A DNA stretch of 64,000 bases. It comes from Brucella rhizosphaerae (GTDB lineage: Bacteria; Pseudomonadota; Alphaproteobacteria; Rhizobiales; Rhizobiaceae). The stretch's first letter is position 1. Each line of letters opens with the position of its first letter. Position numbers and translations under genes: made by a program. The notes below the pieces were generated by a model that saw nothing but the letters and a program-made list of their open reading frames with translations, was not told the origin of the DNA and did no database searches. Positions 6,804 through 46,430 of the stretch are shown here, one piece after another. Where the stretch lies: positions 682,001 through 746,000 of the forward strand of contig NZ_NNRK01000034.1 of NCBI RefSeq assembly GCF_002252475.1, written 5' to 3'.

Positions 6804-7102
6804 AAGATGAGGAATCTTGTCCTGTTAAGCGAGATAAATAGATTTAATTAAAATGAGAACATTACAAGTTTCTAAACCGTTCCCGCTTGCTGTGAGGCAC
6901 GTTTTTACGATCACTTTTGTCGTGCAAGTTATCGAACTACGTTACCGATGGGTATCTCTCAAGCTAGCAGGTTTGGCATTGCAGCCATGCAGTTTATGCA
7001 CTTCTCAAAACGATTAAAAAGGCGGAAGCTCCATGTTGGGAGGAAGGTAAAGAAGCACAGCGCATCCTAAATGAGGTGCGCGGCAAATAAGGGGATACCA
7101 CC
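6804..7102. other. Intergenic stretch, no gene seen
   Basis: This 299-base gap separates the divergent GT29-like and DUF1127 genes and should contain both promoters. One open frame ends in TAA at 7090 but has no start codon or ribosome site. A purine-rich GGGAGGAAGG lies at about 7038 without a suitable start behind it. I see no RNA-like structure. Confidence 0.4.
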
Positions 7103-7252
7103 ATGAACCACCTTCGTACCCAGTTTTCCCGTTGGATGCAGTACCGCGAAAATCTGCGCGAACTCAGTGATTGCAGCGACCGCGAACTTTATGATCTCGG
7201 GCTGTCACGCGGTGATATTCATCGCGTTGCGCGCGAAGCAGCTTTCGCCTGA
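7103..7252 (+). CDS. DUF1127 mini-protein
   Basis: This 49-residue protein matches the DUF1127 (YjiS-like) pattern: an arginine-rich N-terminal helix (RTQFSRWMQYRENLREL), then LSDCSDRELYDLGLSRGDI and a short tail. GGGGAT lies about 8 bases before the ATG. DUF1127 proteins are small, basic and abundant in alphaproteobacteria. In Rhodobacter, CcaF1 of this family binds RNA and affects maturation of the CcsR small RNAs, while others in Agrobacterium affect phosphate and RNA metabolism. The αr14-like RNA at 9811 makes an RNA-related role worth testing here. A perfect hairpin overlaps the stop codon. Confidence 0.88.
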   Translation: MNHLRTQFSRWMQYRENLRELSDCSDRELYDLGLSRGDIHRVAREAAFA

Positions 7253-7289: not shown

Positions 7290-7475
7290 TCAAACCTCAC
7301 CTGGCCGTTTAAAGCGGATGTGGATGTTGTCATCTGCAAGATCAAAACCAGCATAGTTGCGCTGGAAGGCGATGAGGGCATCATTGACGCCCTTTGAATA
7401 ATCGTCTTCCTGCACTTCAACGTGATGCCGGTAAATGATCCTATCGTCTTTATAGAATATAACCTGACCTTCCAT
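7290..7475 (-). CDS. Small conserved-looking protein of unknown function
   Basis: This 61-residue acidic protein has no family I recognise. It reads like a compact soluble domain with a beta-hairpin start (GQVIFYKDDRIIYRHHVEV) and a helix (GVNDALIAFQRNYAGF). Support for it being real is a strong Shine-Dalgarno (GAGGAGG) placed about 6 bases before the ATG, and amino-acid composition typical of a protein rather than a shadow frame. It converges on the DUF1127 gene, with 37 bases between stops. Confidence 0.65.
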   Translation of the reverse strand: MEGQVIFYKDDRIIYRHHVEVQEDDYSKGVNDALIAFQRNYAGFDLADDNIHIRFKRPGEV

Positions 7476-7569: not shown

Positions 7570-8460
7570 TCAAGCCTTGTCGCGGGTGTTTTCATGCTTG
7601 CACAGTGCGAGCCAGGCCCTTGCGGCGTGGGATAAAAAAGCACCTTTTCGCCAGATCAGCGCCATATCCCAGTTTACCTCCGCACCTTTGATTTTATGGA
7701 TGCGGACATCGGGATGCTTGCGCTGTTCGGCAATCATTTGCGGCAGAAAACCGACACCCATGCCAGCGGCTACCAGTTCGACGATAAAATCGATCTGGCT
7801 GGAACGCATGGCGATCTGTGGGGACAATCCGTGCTGATGACATGCATCGAGAATGATGTGATTGAGGGCAAAACCGCTTTCAAAGAGAATGAACGGCAAA
7901 CTGGCGATGTTGCGCAAAAGGATGCCGTCATCATCGGTGAAAGTATGGGTGGCGGGAAGCAGGGCCACGACCGGCTCACAACGAACCGCCTGCCACTCGA
8001 AACTGCTTTCATCGGAAAGAAGAGAAGCAGCCAGTTCGATATCACCTGCAAGAAGCAATTCTTCCAGTCGTTTGCTGCCATGTTCGACAAGCTGAATGTC
8101 GATCTCAGGGTAGAGCTTGGTGAAAGCAGCAAAAACCGGGGCGAACAGCACACTCGAACCGATGGGCGGCAATCCAAGGCGCAAAAGACCGCGCTTCAGG
8201 CCGCGCAGCTCGCCAAGCTCGGTGAGCATGTCGTCTTTTTCCGTCAGCATGCTCAATGCGCGCCGATAGACGATTTCACCTGCGCTGGTCAGACGGGGAG
8301 GGCTGGCTTCACGGTCAAGCAGAATGAGCTCGAGTTCGTCTTCGAGCTGCCGCACCGTCTTACTGACGGTGGATTGTGTGGCATTGATCGTGCGGGCTGC
8401 AGCCGAAAAGCCACCCTGTCGCACCACTTCCACGAAAGCCTGAAAGCTGCGTAAGTTCAT
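7570..8460 (-). CDS. LysR-family transcriptional regulator (CidR-like)
   Basis: This 296-residue LysR regulator has an N-terminal winged helix-turn-helix (residues 1-60; FSAAARTINATQSTVSKTVRQLE) and a C-terminal periplasmic-binding-like effector domain. It is divergent from lrgA-lrgB. In Gram-positive bacteria LysR-type CidR controls cid/lrg genes in response to acetate or overflow metabolism, so control of the adjacent pair is the natural inference. A perfect ATTC-N7-GAAT dyad, the LysR-box form of T-N11-A, lies 2 bases upstream of its ATG, consistent with autoregulation and control of lrgAB. Confidence 0.9.
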   Translation of the reverse strand: MNLRSFQAFVEVVRQGGFSAAARTINATQSTVSKTVRQLEDELELILLDREASPPRLTSAGEIVYRRALSMLTEKDDMLTELGELRGLKRGLLRLGLPPIGSSVLFAPVFAAFTKLYPEIDIQLVEHGSKRLEELLLAGDIELAASLLSDESSFEWQAVRCEPVVALLPATHTFTDDDGILLRNIASLPFILFESGFALNHIILDACHQHGLSPQIAMRSSQIDFIVELVAAGMGVGFLPQMIAEQRKHPDVRIHKIKGAEVNWDMALIWRKGAFLSHAARAWLALCKHENTRDKA

Positions 8461-8557: not shown

Positions 8558-8971
8558 ATGACCATGAATGCCCACAACCTGATGATCCGCTTTCGCTATG
8601 CGCTGCACAACAGCCGCTTGATGCAGATTGCGACGCTGGTCGGCTTCTGGTTGGCAGGTGAGGCATTTGTTCGTTTGAGCGGTCTGCCGCTGCCTGGTGG
8701 CATCGTCGGTATGGCGCTGGTTCTGGTGCTTCTTTTGAGCGGGCGTATCAGTCTTTTCAGCATGAAGCGCGGTGCCGAATGGTTCCTCGCAGAAATGCTG
8801 CTGTTTTTTGTGCCTGCAGTTCTTGCTGTTTTGGAACATCAGGAATTCCTCGGAATGCTGGGCCTGAAGATCATGGCCGTCATTCTGGTTGGCACACTGA
8901 CAGTTATGACTGTCACAGCCTTGACCGTGGACTTCTGTTATCGCCTGAGCGCTCGCTATGCCGCTAAGTAA
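8558..8971 (+). CDS. lrgA: CidA/LrgA family membrane protein
   Basis: This integral membrane protein of about 137 residues has four predicted hydrophobic segments. The family signature is GLPLPGGIVGMALVLVLLL near residues 45-63, the holin-like LrgA/CidA core. A second hydrophobic pair (EMLLFFVPAVLAVL and KIMAVILVGTLTVMTVTAL) follows. CidA/LrgA proteins were described as holin/antiholin-like and later linked to export of pyruvate or other overflow metabolites. Start choice is uncertain: ATG at 8558 or 8564, or an in-frame TTG at 8546. The 3' end overlaps lrgB by 14 bases, so the two are translationally coupled. Confidence 0.88.
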   Translation: MTMNAHNLMIRFRYALHNSRLMQIATLVGFWLAGEAFVRLSGLPLPGGIVGMALVLVLLLSGRISLFSMKRGAEWFLAEMLLFFVPAVLAVLEHQEFLGMLGLKIMAVILVGTLTVMTVTALTVDFCYRLSARYAAK

Positions 8972-9653
8972 CCCCTATGTGGCGACGCTATTCTGGTCTG
9001 TGGCCACGATCCTCTTCTATCTTGCTGCAAAGCGCGTTTATCGCCGCTTTCCCATGTGGTGGTTGACGCCGCTTGCGATCACTCCTTTGCTGCTGATGGG
9101 CTTGCTGATCGGGCTTAATGAAAATTATCGCAACTATTTCAGCGCAACCCACTGGCTGGTGGCGCTGCTAGGGCCGGCAACGGTAGCTTTCGCCATTCCG
9201 ATCTACCAGCAGCGCGCAACCATTCGTCGCTATTGGCCGGTTCTTATGGTTGGTGTTGTAATCGGTAGCTCGTCTGCGATGTTTTCGGCGTGGGGGCTTG
9301 CGCATCTTCTTGGTCTGAACGACGCGATTAGTCTCAGCCTGATGCCGCGTTCCATGAGTACGCCTTTCGCCATGACGGTTTCCGGCGATATTGGCGGTAC
9401 GCCCGACCTCACAGCCATTTTTGTGGTTATAACCGGCGTATTCGGCGCAGCTCTTGGCGAGGTGATGCTCAATTGGTTGCCGCTTCGCTCAGCTCTTGCG
9501 CGCGGTGCACTGTTTGGTATGGGCGCGCATGGCGCCGGTGTTGCTAAGGCCCATCAGATCGGCAGCGAGGAGGGCTCGATTGCTGGCCTCGTCATGGTTC
9601 TGGTCGGTTTGGTCAATGTTCTGGCTGCGCCGTTCATCGCCCAGCTTCTCTGA
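8958..9653 (+). CDS. lrgB: CidB/LrgB family membrane protein
   Basis: This 231-residue polytopic membrane protein is the usual partner of LrgA. It contains the LrgB core motifs LMPRSMSTPFAM and GDIGGTPDLTAIFVVITGVFGA. A C-terminal glycine-rich segment GMGAHGAGVAKAHQIG also matches. There are about seven hydrophobic helices and the length is normal for the family. The ATG lies inside the lrgA reading frame. The pair probably forms an inner-membrane complex controlled by the divergent LysR regulator. Confidence 0.92.
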   Translation: MPLSNPYVATLFWSVATILFYLAAKRVYRRFPMWWLTPLAITPLLLMGLLIGLNENYRNYFSATHWLVALLGPATVAFAIPIYQQRATIRRYWPVLMVGVVIGSSSAMFSAWGLAHLLGLNDAISLSLMPRSMSTPFAMTVSGDIGGTPDLTAIFVVITGVFGAALGEVMLNWLPLRSALARGALFGMGAHGAGVAKAHQIGSEEGSIAGLVMVLVGLVNVLAAPFIAQLL

Positions 9654-9685
9654 GCTGCTGATTTTTAAGCACATTTTACTCGATA

Positions 9686-9702
9686 TGCTTATAATATAAG
9701 CA
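9686..9702. promoter_or_regulatory. AT-rich dyad containing TATAAT
   Basis: TGCTTAT and ATAAGCA form a 7-base inverted repeat around AAT, and the sequence contains a perfect TATAAT. It could be a promoter -10 element or a binding site; it lies 33 bases after lrgB and about 110 bases before the small RNA. Confidence 0.3.
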
Positions 9703-9810
9703 GACTCAACACATCTGTGTTTCTGCAACAATCTTAAGCATCGGCGTATTTGCATAACTGATATGCGTTATTGACCGTTGTTGAATAATGAGGCTGCAGG
9801 TAATTATTAG

Positions 9811-9920
9811 TCATCGGGTTCACTCCTCCTCCCAGAACCCGATGCGGGATACGGCACTCCTCCTCCCAGCCGTATTCAAGATCAGGCCGCGCATCCTCCT
9901 CCCGCGCGGCCTTTTTCTTT
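9811..9920 (+). ncRNA. αr14-like trans-acting small RNA (cuckoo/CcsR type)
   Basis: Three consecutive hairpins each expose a CCTCCTCCC motif in the loop. Hairpin 1 has ATCGGGTT (9813-9820) paired with AACCCGAT (9836-9843). Hairpin 2 has ATACGGC (9849-9855) paired with GCCGTAT (9869-9875). Hairpin 3 has GGCCGCGC (9885-9892) paired with GCGCGGCC (9904-9911), followed directly by five T, so it is also the terminator. The repeated C-rich loops are complementary to Shine-Dalgarno sequences. This architecture is that of the αr14 family of Rhizobiales (NfeR1 in Sinorhizobium) and of CcsR1-4 in Rhodobacter, which act in stress responses and on many mRNAs. The 5' end is not fixed by a clear promoter. 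Confidence 0.85.
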
Positions 9921-10077
9921 TTCTACTCTTCCCAACATCCCGATCAGTTAACAGTGCGTCGCTACATCGCCCCATGGGCAAGTGTGACAATGTAAACTAT
10001 CTCTCGTGCAACTTCATATTTGCGGCGATTGTTTCTGTCTGAGAGACTTGCCGCAACGAAACGCGGGAGATTGCATC

Positions 10078-45635: not shown

Positions 45636-46430
45636 ATGCCAAGATTTGCAGCCAATCTCACCATGCTTTTTACCGAAGTGCCGTTCATGGATCGGTTCGC
45701 GCTGGCCGCAAAGGCTGGCTTCACAGGGGTTGAATATCTCTTCCCCTATGATTTCAATCGTCATGAACTGAAAGCCGCACTCACCAAGCACAATCTGGCG
45801 CAGGTGTTGCACAATTTGCCAGCTGGCAACTGGGGCGGTGGCGAACGTGGTATCGCGGTTCTGCCTGATCGTATCGATGAGTTTCGGCGTGGTGTCGCCG
45901 ACGCAATTGACTATGCCACAGCGCTCAACTGTTCGCAGGTAAATTGCCTCGCGGGTATTGCGCCGCAAGGCGCCGATCCTGATGTGCTGCGTGCGACCTT
46001 CGTCAGCAATCTGCGGCTTGCATCGAAGGAACTTGGCAAACACGGCATCCGCCTGCTGATCGAGCCGATCAATCACTATGATATTCCGGGCTTCTACCTC
46101 AACACGGTCGAACAGGCAGTTTCGATTATCGATGAGGTCGGCAGTAACAACCTGTTCATCCAGTATGACCTCTATCACCAGCAGCGCACACGCGGCGAAC
46201 TGATCGCCACTTATGAGCGCTACAAGCCACTGATCGCGCATGTTCAGCTTGCCGATAATCCGGGTCGTAACGAGCCGGGCACGGGCGAAATCAACTATCC
46301 ATACGTGTTCGAAGCACTGAAAGCCGCTGGTTACAAGGGCTGGATCGGCTGCGAATACAAGCCAAAGACCACCACCGAAGACGGTCTTGGCTGGTTTAAA
46401 CAATATGAAGCCGAACGGCTTAGTGCATAG
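45636..46430 (+). CDS. hyi: Hydroxypyruvate isomerase
   Basis: This 264-residue TIM-barrel protein interconverts hydroxypyruvate and tartronate semialdehyde. It matches the Hyi family: PRFAANLTMLFTEVPFMDRFALAAKAGFTGVEYLFPYDF, the metal-binding EPINHYDIPGFYLN, YDLYHQQRTRGEL, HVQLADNPGRNEPGTGEINYP. AGAGGAGGCG gives a strong ribosome site before the ATG. It lies between gcl and glxR; a short RIME remnant (GAGCAATTCCAGG) sits after the gcl stop. Confidence 0.96.
   Translation: MPRFAANLTMLFTEVPFMDRFALAAKAGFTGVEYLFPYDFNRHELKAALTKHNLAQVLHNLPAGNWGGGERGIAVLPDRIDEFRRGVADAIDYATALNCSQVNCLAGIAPQGADPDVLRATFVSNLRLASKELGKHGIRLLIEPINHYDIPGFYLNTVEQAVSIIDEVGSNNLFIQYDLYHQQRTRGELIATYERYKPLIAHVQLADNPGRNEPGTGEINYPYVFEALKAAGYKGWIGCEYKPKTTTEDGLGWFKQYEAERLSA

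What the first reader, a model, noticed from the sequence alone, without database searches (positions are those of the whole stretch)
9811..9920. Small RNA with three anti-Shine-Dalgarno loops
Seen: three adjacent hairpins, each loop containing CCTCCTCCC, the last ending in a T run. This matches αr14 (NfeR1) RNAs of Rhizobiales and CcsR/cuckoo RNAs. The loops can pair with GGAGG ribosome sites, and this window has many strong ones (hyi AGAGGAGG, gcl GGAGGAAG, xdhB GGAGG, porin GGAGG, the 61-residue ORF GAGGAGG). Inference: it could down-regulate transport and catabolic mRNAs locally and globally. A DUF1127 gene, a family tied to CcsR maturation in Rhodobacter, lies 2.6 kb away.
Basis: partly seen in the sequence, partly recalled or inferred. 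Interest (0 to 1): 0.75.

Follow-up and report, generated by a model that had tools for sequence, protein, structure and literature searches.

The report
NfeR1-type small RNA in Brucella kin
The three-hairpin RNA is a clear member of a known bacterial small-RNA family thought to block ribosome-binding sites; its likely switch, and an unannotated RNA-like partner next to sister copies, are the less expected parts.

Summary
Window 9806-9917 (+) scores 85.2 bits against Rfam ar14 (cut-off 58.8) and folds into three stable hairpins with CCTCCTCCC in each loop. The same cluster follows lrgB in 23 of 48 lrgB loci fetched, 20 of 21 named Brucella/Ochrobactrum among them. It is NfeR1-type, not CcsR1 (29.5 bits against 65.3).

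The genome has five ar14 copies over the cut-off: three standalone, two directly behind DUF1127 genes. The published VtlR/LsrB box GCAT-N3-TG-N3-T is at the copy's own promoter in 41 of 45 copies checked, including the window's, and also precedes the window's DUF1127 gene. Likely mechanism: a VtlR/LsrB-activated sRNA whose loops occlude Shine-Dalgarno sites. Specific action on genes of this window is not supported; an NtrC-like motif upstream is conserved and open.

Most novel lead: standalone copies not behind lrgB are preceded by an unannotated element, GGAGGAGG-like plus terminator hairpin (57 strong hits in 31 of 35 genus genomes), complementary to the loops; perhaps a sponge. No transcript data were available.

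The parts
9806..9917 (+). ar14 / NfeR1-type sRNA (start approximate, about 9806-9811)
   Evidence: Rfam RF02344, 85.2 bits, model 1-123 of 123; fold z = -8.2
9812..9844 (+). hairpin 1; loop anti-SD motif CCTCCTCCC at 9825-9833
   Evidence: one pair changes G-C to A-U in orthologs
9847..9877 (+). hairpin 2; loop anti-SD motif at 9859-9867
   Evidence: one pair varies on one side only
9884..9922 (+). hairpin 3 (9884-9912) and T run = probable intrinsic terminator; loop anti-SD motif at 9895-9903
   Evidence: invariant in 15 distinct rows; the generic terminator scan (loops of 3-8) does not list it
9752..9766 (+). VtlR/LsrB-type box GCATAACTGATATGC; matches published GCAT-N3-TG-N3-T at 9752-9764
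   Evidence: consensus from PMC7486931 (passages)
9724..9740 (+). TGC-N11-GCA, NtrC-like motif or a further LysR half-site, 28 nt upstream of the box
   Evidence: exact in the window and 15 of 23 orthologs; TGC-N11-GCR in 22 of 24 rows; 0 of 18 sister standalone copies
9776..9805 (+). putative -35/-10 (CGTTGTT, 17 nt, GTAATT), by position relative to CTTAGAC-N17-CTATAT of PMC10746234
   Evidence: inference from the sequence; a generic sigma-70 scan found nothing here
9686..9702 (+). a second TGC-N11-GCA dyad, in the alignment at the place of the lrgB terminator-like hairpin of other species
   Evidence: kept in 5 of 23 orthologs; alignment
8958..9653 (+). lrgB, conserved upstream neighbour
   Evidence: Pfam LrgB 246 bits; synteny
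7103..7252 (+). small DUF1127 protein gene, probably in the same VtlR/LsrB regulon
   Evidence: Pfam 54.8 bits
6976..6990 (+). VtlR/LsrB-type box GCATTGCAGCCATGC upstream of the DUF1127 gene
   Evidence: box present in 19 of 19 loci in which my pattern found the ORF, of 26 tried

Best explanation
This is an NfeR1-type (ar14) trans-acting small RNA of an Ochrobactrum-type Brucella. It is probably transcribed from its own promoter, activated by the LysR-type regulator VtlR (= LsrB) bound at 9752-9766, and ends at its third hairpin. Each of the three loops shows CCUCCUCCC, so one RNA can pair with GGAGG-type ribosome sites of many mRNAs and stop translation initiation. In this genome it is one of five such RNAs sharing the box, together with DUF1127 small-protein genes and one AbcR RNA. 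Shown here: family membership, predicted structure, conservation, synteny, the box and its conservation. Inferred: expression, VtlR binding at this site, targets and the repression mechanism (the last by analogy with S. meliloti NfeR1).
For: ar14 85.2 bits; fold z -8.2. Among the five own paralogs the loops are nearly constant (one C-to-T change in L003; loop 3 of L005 degenerate) while stems differ (L003 and L004 are near twins). A three-motif cluster sits behind lrgB in 23 of 48 lrgB loci. In the ortholog alignment (24 rows, 15 distinct) 97.9% of cells pair against 27-38% when slid; 7 cells change on both sides. ar14 over the cut-off in 35 of 35 genus genomes. VtlR box at the own promoter in 41 of 45 ar14 copies: 23 of 27 standalone at -51 to -58 from the model start, 18 of 18 DUF1127-linked 92-116 nt before the DUF1127 start; background 115 in 496,208 bases. 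A LysR gene directly behind trxB, the published vtlR context, is present. In S. meliloti, LsrB activates NfeR1 and the three aSD loops act redundantly on targets (PMC10746234, sections).
Against: No expression data. The -35/-10 match is weak and a generic scan found none. Helix 3 never varies and helix 2 varies on one side only, and the number of pairs changed on both sides (2) is reached by 230 of 500 shuffles, so covariation among orthologs is modest. Four of 45 copies lack the exact box. The ntrB interaction known from S. meliloti is not predicted here (-2.2 to -3.1 kcal/mol). The B. melitensis VtlR study reports AbcR2 and three DUF1127 genes as main targets and, in the passages I saw, does not mention ar14 RNAs. 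vtlR was identified by gene context and LysR domains alone.
Confidence: 0.8

Rival explanations
1. Same sRNA, but its decisive control is repression by NtrC at TGC-N11-GCA (9724-9740) beside the VtlR/LsrB box, so that it answers to nitrogen as NfeR1 does in S. meliloti. This is compatible with VtlR activation and would add to it.
For: The motif given for NtrC in PMC10746234 is exact in the window and 15 of 23 orthologs, and TGC-N11-GCR in 22 of 24 rows, always 28 nt before the box.
Against: In S. meliloti the two sites are about 44 nt apart, start to start (from positions); 0 of 18 sister standalone copies have it; the stretch may be a second LysR half-site; the ntrB start region shows no pairing; [quoted passage not shown]
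Confidence: 0.2
2. It is a CcsR/cuckoo-type RNA processed from a DUF1127 mRNA, matured with help of the DUF1127 protein.
For: Same CCUCCUCCC loops; weak RF02791 match, 29.5 bits; two other ar14 copies of this genome do lie directly behind DUF1127 genes.
Against: RF02791 cut-off is 65.3 bits; the DUF1127 gene is 2.6 kb away with lysR, lrgA and lrgB between; the sRNA has its own conserved upstream box.
Confidence: 0.04
3. It is the 3' UTR of lrgB, released by processing, and tied to lrgAB expression.
For: It follows lrgB on the same strand in 23 of 48 lrgB loci; in the window no GC-rich terminator is left in the gap, only a weak candidate at the lrgB end (9642-9657).
Against: A strict rule finds a perfect GC-rich stem of 5-9 pairs in the gap in 18 of 23 orthologs, several followed by a T run; the box region is the best conserved part of the gap; sister standalone copies L003 and L004 with the same box have other neighbours.
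Confidence: 0.08
4. It mainly regulates genes of this window (hyi, gcl, xdhB, porin).
Against: Of 58 ORFs scored, best of several starts each, the median was -8.4 and the strongest -17.4; these do not stand out and none of the 58 starts has an 8-nt match. Strong SD sites in general would pair.
Confidence: 0.06

Closest known systems
ar14 / NfeR1 (Rfam RF02344; founding member in Sinorhizobium meliloti)
   Same: Three hairpins with CCUCCUCCC loops, differing stems, full-length model match, LsrB/VtlR-type box in the promoter.
   Different: Five copies in this genome; NtrC-like motif at another spacing and unproven; ntrB pairing site not seen; behind lrgB (neighbourhood of nfeR1 not compared).
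CcsR RNAs (RF02791) and DUF1127-linked cuckoo/CIN1 loci of Rhodobacter and other alphaproteobacteria
   Same: CCUCCUCCC loops; two sister copies in this genome follow DUF1127 genes.
   Different: Window copy stands alone, scores below the CcsR1 cut-off and has its own box.
AbcR1/AbcR2 (ar15, RF02345)
   Same: Anti-SD sRNAs; one AbcR copy of this genome has the same box and lies about 6.5 kb from trxB, beside which the likely vtlR sits.
   Different: Different family; the ar14 model gives that locus 23.7 bits only, ar15 76.2.
CrfA sponge and SisA-D (ar8) of Caulobacter (PMC12559287, abstract and passages)
   Same: Works-like comparison for the upstream GGAGGAGG element: a G/A-rich RNA that titrates sRNAs with an anti-SD signature.
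   Different: Different families; no transcript, Hfq or sponge evidence for the element here.

Membership tests
ar14 (RF02344) | covariance model score above gathering cut-off | tested here: met
   85.2 against 58.8 bits, model 1-123
ar14 (RF02344) | three hairpins each with a CCUCCUCCC loop | tested here: met
ar14 (RF02344) | stems divergent, loops conserved between members | tested here: met
   five paralogs, with one C-to-T loop change in L003, a degenerate third loop in L005, and L003/L004 nearly alike
NfeR1 (functional) | LsrB/VtlR site upstream of a separate promoter | tested here: inconclusive
   Published box present and conserved; S. meliloti places it at -72 to -57, here about -54 from the model start; binding not testable
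NfeR1 (functional) | NtrC site in the promoter | tested here: inconclusive
   TGC-N11-GCA at 9724-9740, exact in 16 of 24 rows, but at another spacing; binding not testable
NfeR1 (functional) | ntrB start region as pairing target | tested here: not met
   -2.2 and -3.1 kcal/mol for two possible starts of the gene before ntrC
NfeR1 (functional) | about 115-123 nt transcript induced by N or salt stress | not testable with these tools
   no RNA data
CcsR1 (RF02791) | covariance model score above gathering cut-off | tested here: not met
   29.5 against 65.3 bits
CcsR / CIN1 locus | co-transcribed directly behind a DUF1127 gene | tested here: not met
   By position: DUF1127 gene 2.6 kb upstream, three genes between; sister copies L002 and L005 lie directly behind one

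The most novel reading that the evidence does not exclude
In Ochrobactrum-type Brucella, the standalone sister copies of this sRNA that are not behind lrgB are preceded by a separate, so far unannotated short RNA. It would carry a Shine-Dalgarno look-alike (GGAGGAGG or similar) directly before its own terminator and act as a ribosome-site decoy that soaks up the anti-SD loops of the whole VtlR-controlled ar14 set, including the window's copy, so that activator, sRNAs and sponge form one circuit.
Probability: 0.3. Interest if true: 0.7.

Novelty: new member of a known kind. Interest (0 to 1): 0.42.

Why it matters
The sRNA itself is a textbook ar14 RNA. What it adds is a testable regulon: the published VtlR box precedes 41 of 45 ar14 copies examined in nine genus genomes, in both architectures (standalone and behind DUF1127). 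In B. melitensis, overexpressing the reported VtlR targets (AbcR2 and three DUF1127 genes) did not restore the mutant's virulence (PMC12595884, passages), so ar14 RNAs are candidates for members of that regulon not yet annotated. The GGAGGAGG element, if transcribed, would be a sponge for anti-SD sRNAs so far seen in this genus only.

Tried and rejected
CcsR1 membership: below cut-off. Local targets: no outlier among 58 ORFs. ntrB as target: no pairing. NtrC is therefore an open rival, raised from 0.04 to 0.2, and the main confidence went from 0.82 to 0.80. Further weak ar14 hits of the own genome: L006 is AbcR (ar15, 76.2 bits); L007 (22.9 bits, under the cut-off) was not pursued. A genome-wide box-like pattern (up to 1 mismatch) gave 13 hits against 4 for the reversed pattern, too unspecific to define a regulon. 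A first pattern for the GGAGG element found nothing in the own genome, being too narrow; the covariance model then found both copies, which were in its training set. The purine stretch as an ordinary terminator A-tract: 25-nt flanks of 28 non-redundant terminators found by my strict rule reached at best -5.1 kcal/mol against the loop, the 18 element copies -14.3 to -23.2; the control set is small and pairing of the purines with the T run remains possible. At E <= 1 no Rfam match overlaps the element in the nine loci scanned. Paper searches: in the listings (titles, starts of abstracts, at most 25 rows each) and the passages I opened I saw nothing on ar14 control by VtlR in Brucella or on this element. 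Only openly licensed PMC papers are held; the cuckoo-family paper, the CcaF1 paper and a DOI tried for the Agrobacterium LsrB-sRNA paper were not held. The 2017 NfeR1 paper was not read.

Full report
OBSERVATION. Reading the strand gives CCTCCTCCC at 9825-9833, 9859-9867 and 9895-9903, each in the loop of a hairpin (stems 9812-9821/9835-9844, 9847-9855/9869-9877, 9884-9892/9904-9912), the third followed by a T run. The fold is far stronger than 200 shuffles (z = -8.2, none as low). Rfam's ar14 model covers 9806-9917 end to end at 85.2 bits, cut-off 58.8, the only match at the gathering threshold in the window.

GENOME AND NEIGHBOURHOOD. lrgB of the window is 97% identical to Brucella grignonensis and B. 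pituitosa, so the genome is an Ochrobactrum-type Brucella (inference from one gene). Near the sRNA lie a DUF1127 gene (7103-7252), a LysR gene (7570-8460, minus), lrgA, lrgB and a glyoxalase-domain gene. Of 48 lrgB loci fetched, 23 have a cluster of three anti-SD motifs about 110-180 nt behind lrgB: 20 of the 21 titled Brucella or Ochrobactrum (B. endophytica, 74% lrgB identity, lacks it) and three titled Rhizobiales bacterium. The other 25 do not; one of them has a two-motif cluster elsewhere (L070).

FAMILY SIZE. The own genome has five ar14 copies over the cut-off plus two weak hits, of which one is an AbcR RNA. Of 151 family genomes, 137 have a copy over the cut-off; of 35 genus genomes, 35 do, with 3 to 8 matches each at E <= 0.001.

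TWO ARCHITECTURES. L002 and L005 of the own genome lie directly behind DUF1127 genes, as in the DUF1127-CcsR loci described for alphaproteobacteria (PMC10253847, passages); L002 has a further anti-SD hairpin before the ar14 match (read by eye). The window copy (L001), L003 and L004 stand alone.

PROMOTER. In the alignment of the window with 23 orthologs, TTTGCATAACTGATATGC and the following TTATTG are the best conserved part of the lrgB-sRNA gap. The core GCATAACTGATAT (9752-9764) fits GCAT-N3-TG-N3-T, the VtlR box described as confirmed in B. abortus and hypothesised in A. tumefaciens (PMC7486931, passages). I tested this published pattern unchanged on the five own copies and on 40 copies from eight unnamed genus genomes, taken from those whose copies were all listed (two more of that sort, G173 and G177, were not used). 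It is at the copy's own promoter in 41 of 45: 23 of 27 standalone copies at -51 to -58 from the model start, and 18 of 18 DUF1127-linked copies (linkage by a rough ORF pattern) 92-116 nt before the DUF1127 start. The misses are L145, L149, L160 and L166; L149 has a match only at the place of its divergent partner; by eye all four show related sequences there. Background density is 115 in 496,208 bases of the 48 lrgB loci and 18 in the 64-kb window, true sites included. The window's DUF1127 gene has GCATTGCAGCCATGC upstream (6976-6990); its overlap with the CAATGCAGCCATGCA motif reported for VtlR (PMC12595884, passages) differs by one base. The box is present in 19 of 19 loci in which my pattern found that ORF, of 26 tried; it was not found in four of the 23 loci with the sRNA and in three without. 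In the own genome the DUF1127 genes before L002 and L005 and one AbcR also have the box; one further strong and three weaker DUF1127 hits and the second AbcR do not (300 nt searched). This resembles the published B. melitensis regulon of AbcR2 and three DUF1127 genes, with a fourth lacking the motif. A LysR-family gene directly behind trxB (L207:544-1449, minus) is the likely vtlR; the boxed AbcR lies about 6.5 kb from trxB on the same strand. In S. meliloti LsrB activates NfeR1 (PMC10746234; sections 3, 5, 8 and part 1 of 11 read). That paper says that an earlier alignment including Brucella showed a conserved 29-nt promoter stretch, so part of this was seen before.

NTRC-LIKE MOTIF. TGC-N11-GCA, the motif that PMC10746234 gives for NtrC, occurs twice. 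At 9686-9702 it is kept in 5 of 23 orthologs and lies at the place of a terminator-like hairpin. At 9724-9740 it is exact in the window and 15 of 23 orthologs and TGC-N11-GCR in 22 of 24 rows, always 28 nt before the box; none of 18 sister standalone copies has it between -125 and -45. The paper found no evident NtrC signature with Brucella promoters, and a LysR half-site is an alternative, so I leave this open.

STRUCTURE CONSERVATION. In the ortholog alignment (24 rows, 15 distinct), 97.9% of cells pair against 27-38% when partners are slid; seven cells change on both sides, all in hairpin 1. The number of pairs changed on both sides (2) is reached by 230 of 500 shuffles, so this test alone is modest; helix 3 never varies. 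The paralogs add more: stems differ while loops stay, apart from one C-to-T change in L003 and a degenerate third loop in L005; L003 and L004 are near twins.

MECHANISM. By analogy with NfeR1, whose three motifs act redundantly on reporter mRNAs (PMC10746234), the RNA most likely occludes GGAGG-type sites. In the window, GGGAGGAGG does not occur outside the complement of the sRNA; GGAGGAGG occurs twice on the plus strand, not at a start that I scored; 7-nt GAGGAGG lies before the ORF at 45636 and the 61-residue ORF at 7475, and at other places. Of 58 ORFs of 90 or more residues, the best start of each pairs with the loop at a median of -8.4 and at best -17.4 kcal/mol. The start region of the gene before ntrC (taken as ntrB) pairs at only -2.2 to -3.1 kcal/mol, so the S. 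meliloti ntrB loop is not expected here.

THE UPSTREAM ELEMENT OF SISTER COPIES. Of the 27 standalone copies, nine are behind lrgB (the window's and eight fetched). In each of the other 18 a hairpin CGCC...GGCG with T run, preceded by a purine-rich stretch such as CTTGGAGGAGGGAGT, lies just upstream of the box. A covariance model built from these 18 gives 57 matches of 48 bits or more, the 18 included, in 31 of 35 genus genomes; three of 35 have none at E <= 0.1 and one has only 31.7 bits. None lies by the window copy. Of the 57, 51 lie 54-207 nt upstream of a listed ar14 on the same strand; for six no ar14 row was in the truncated list. In a sample of 111 family genomes nothing outside the genus exceeds 31.0 bits, under stricter filters. 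The 18 purine stretches pair with the anti-SD loop at -14.3 to -23.2 kcal/mol, 14 of 18 better than 95% of 300 shuffles of their own letters; 28 non-redundant terminator flanks reach at best -5.1. No Rfam match at E <= 1 overlaps it in nine loci scanned. It may be a ribosome-site decoy or sponge, comparable in kind with Caulobacter CrfA acting on SisA-D (PMC12559287). Against this: no transcript is known, the purines can also pair with the T run, four copies do not beat their shuffles at 5%, and the stretch drew my eye by its GGAGG before it was tested.

VERDICT. A sound new member of a known family, with a better-defined probable regulator than the finding stated, weak support for local targets, an open NtrC question, and one untested lead outside the window.

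Noticed in passing
L003:1362-1441 (+), L004:1361-1440 (-): Unannotated GGGAGGA/GGAGGAGG stretch plus terminator hairpin just upstream of two sister ar14 copies; 57 strong matches in 31 of 35 genus genomes; complementary to the anti-SD loops.
   Followed up: partly
L002 (C18), upstream of the ar14 match: A further anti-SD hairpin between the DUF1127 gene and the three-hairpin ar14 match, so this DUF1127 locus seems to have four such loops.
   Followed up: no
L009, L010, L012, L015, L017, L019, L020, L023, L024, L026, L027, L035: In other genera of the family, anti-SD clusters come in tandem within about 200-550 nt; several such or similar loci (for example L015, L024, L027, L033) carry TTGCACTGCACA upstream.
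   Followed up: no
L149/L151, L155/L156, L179/L181: Divergent pairs of ar14 copies about 0.6 kb apart in three genus genomes, each copy with its own upstream element.
   Followed up: no
window 9686-9702: TGCTTATAATATAAGCA, a dyad at the place of the lrgB terminator-like hairpin of other species; no GC-rich terminator is left in this gap, so read-through from lrgB into the sRNA is possible.
   Followed up: partly
G159, G165, G180: Three genus genomes of 3.3-3.8 Mb have ar14 copies but no match to the upstream GGAGG element.
   Followed up: no
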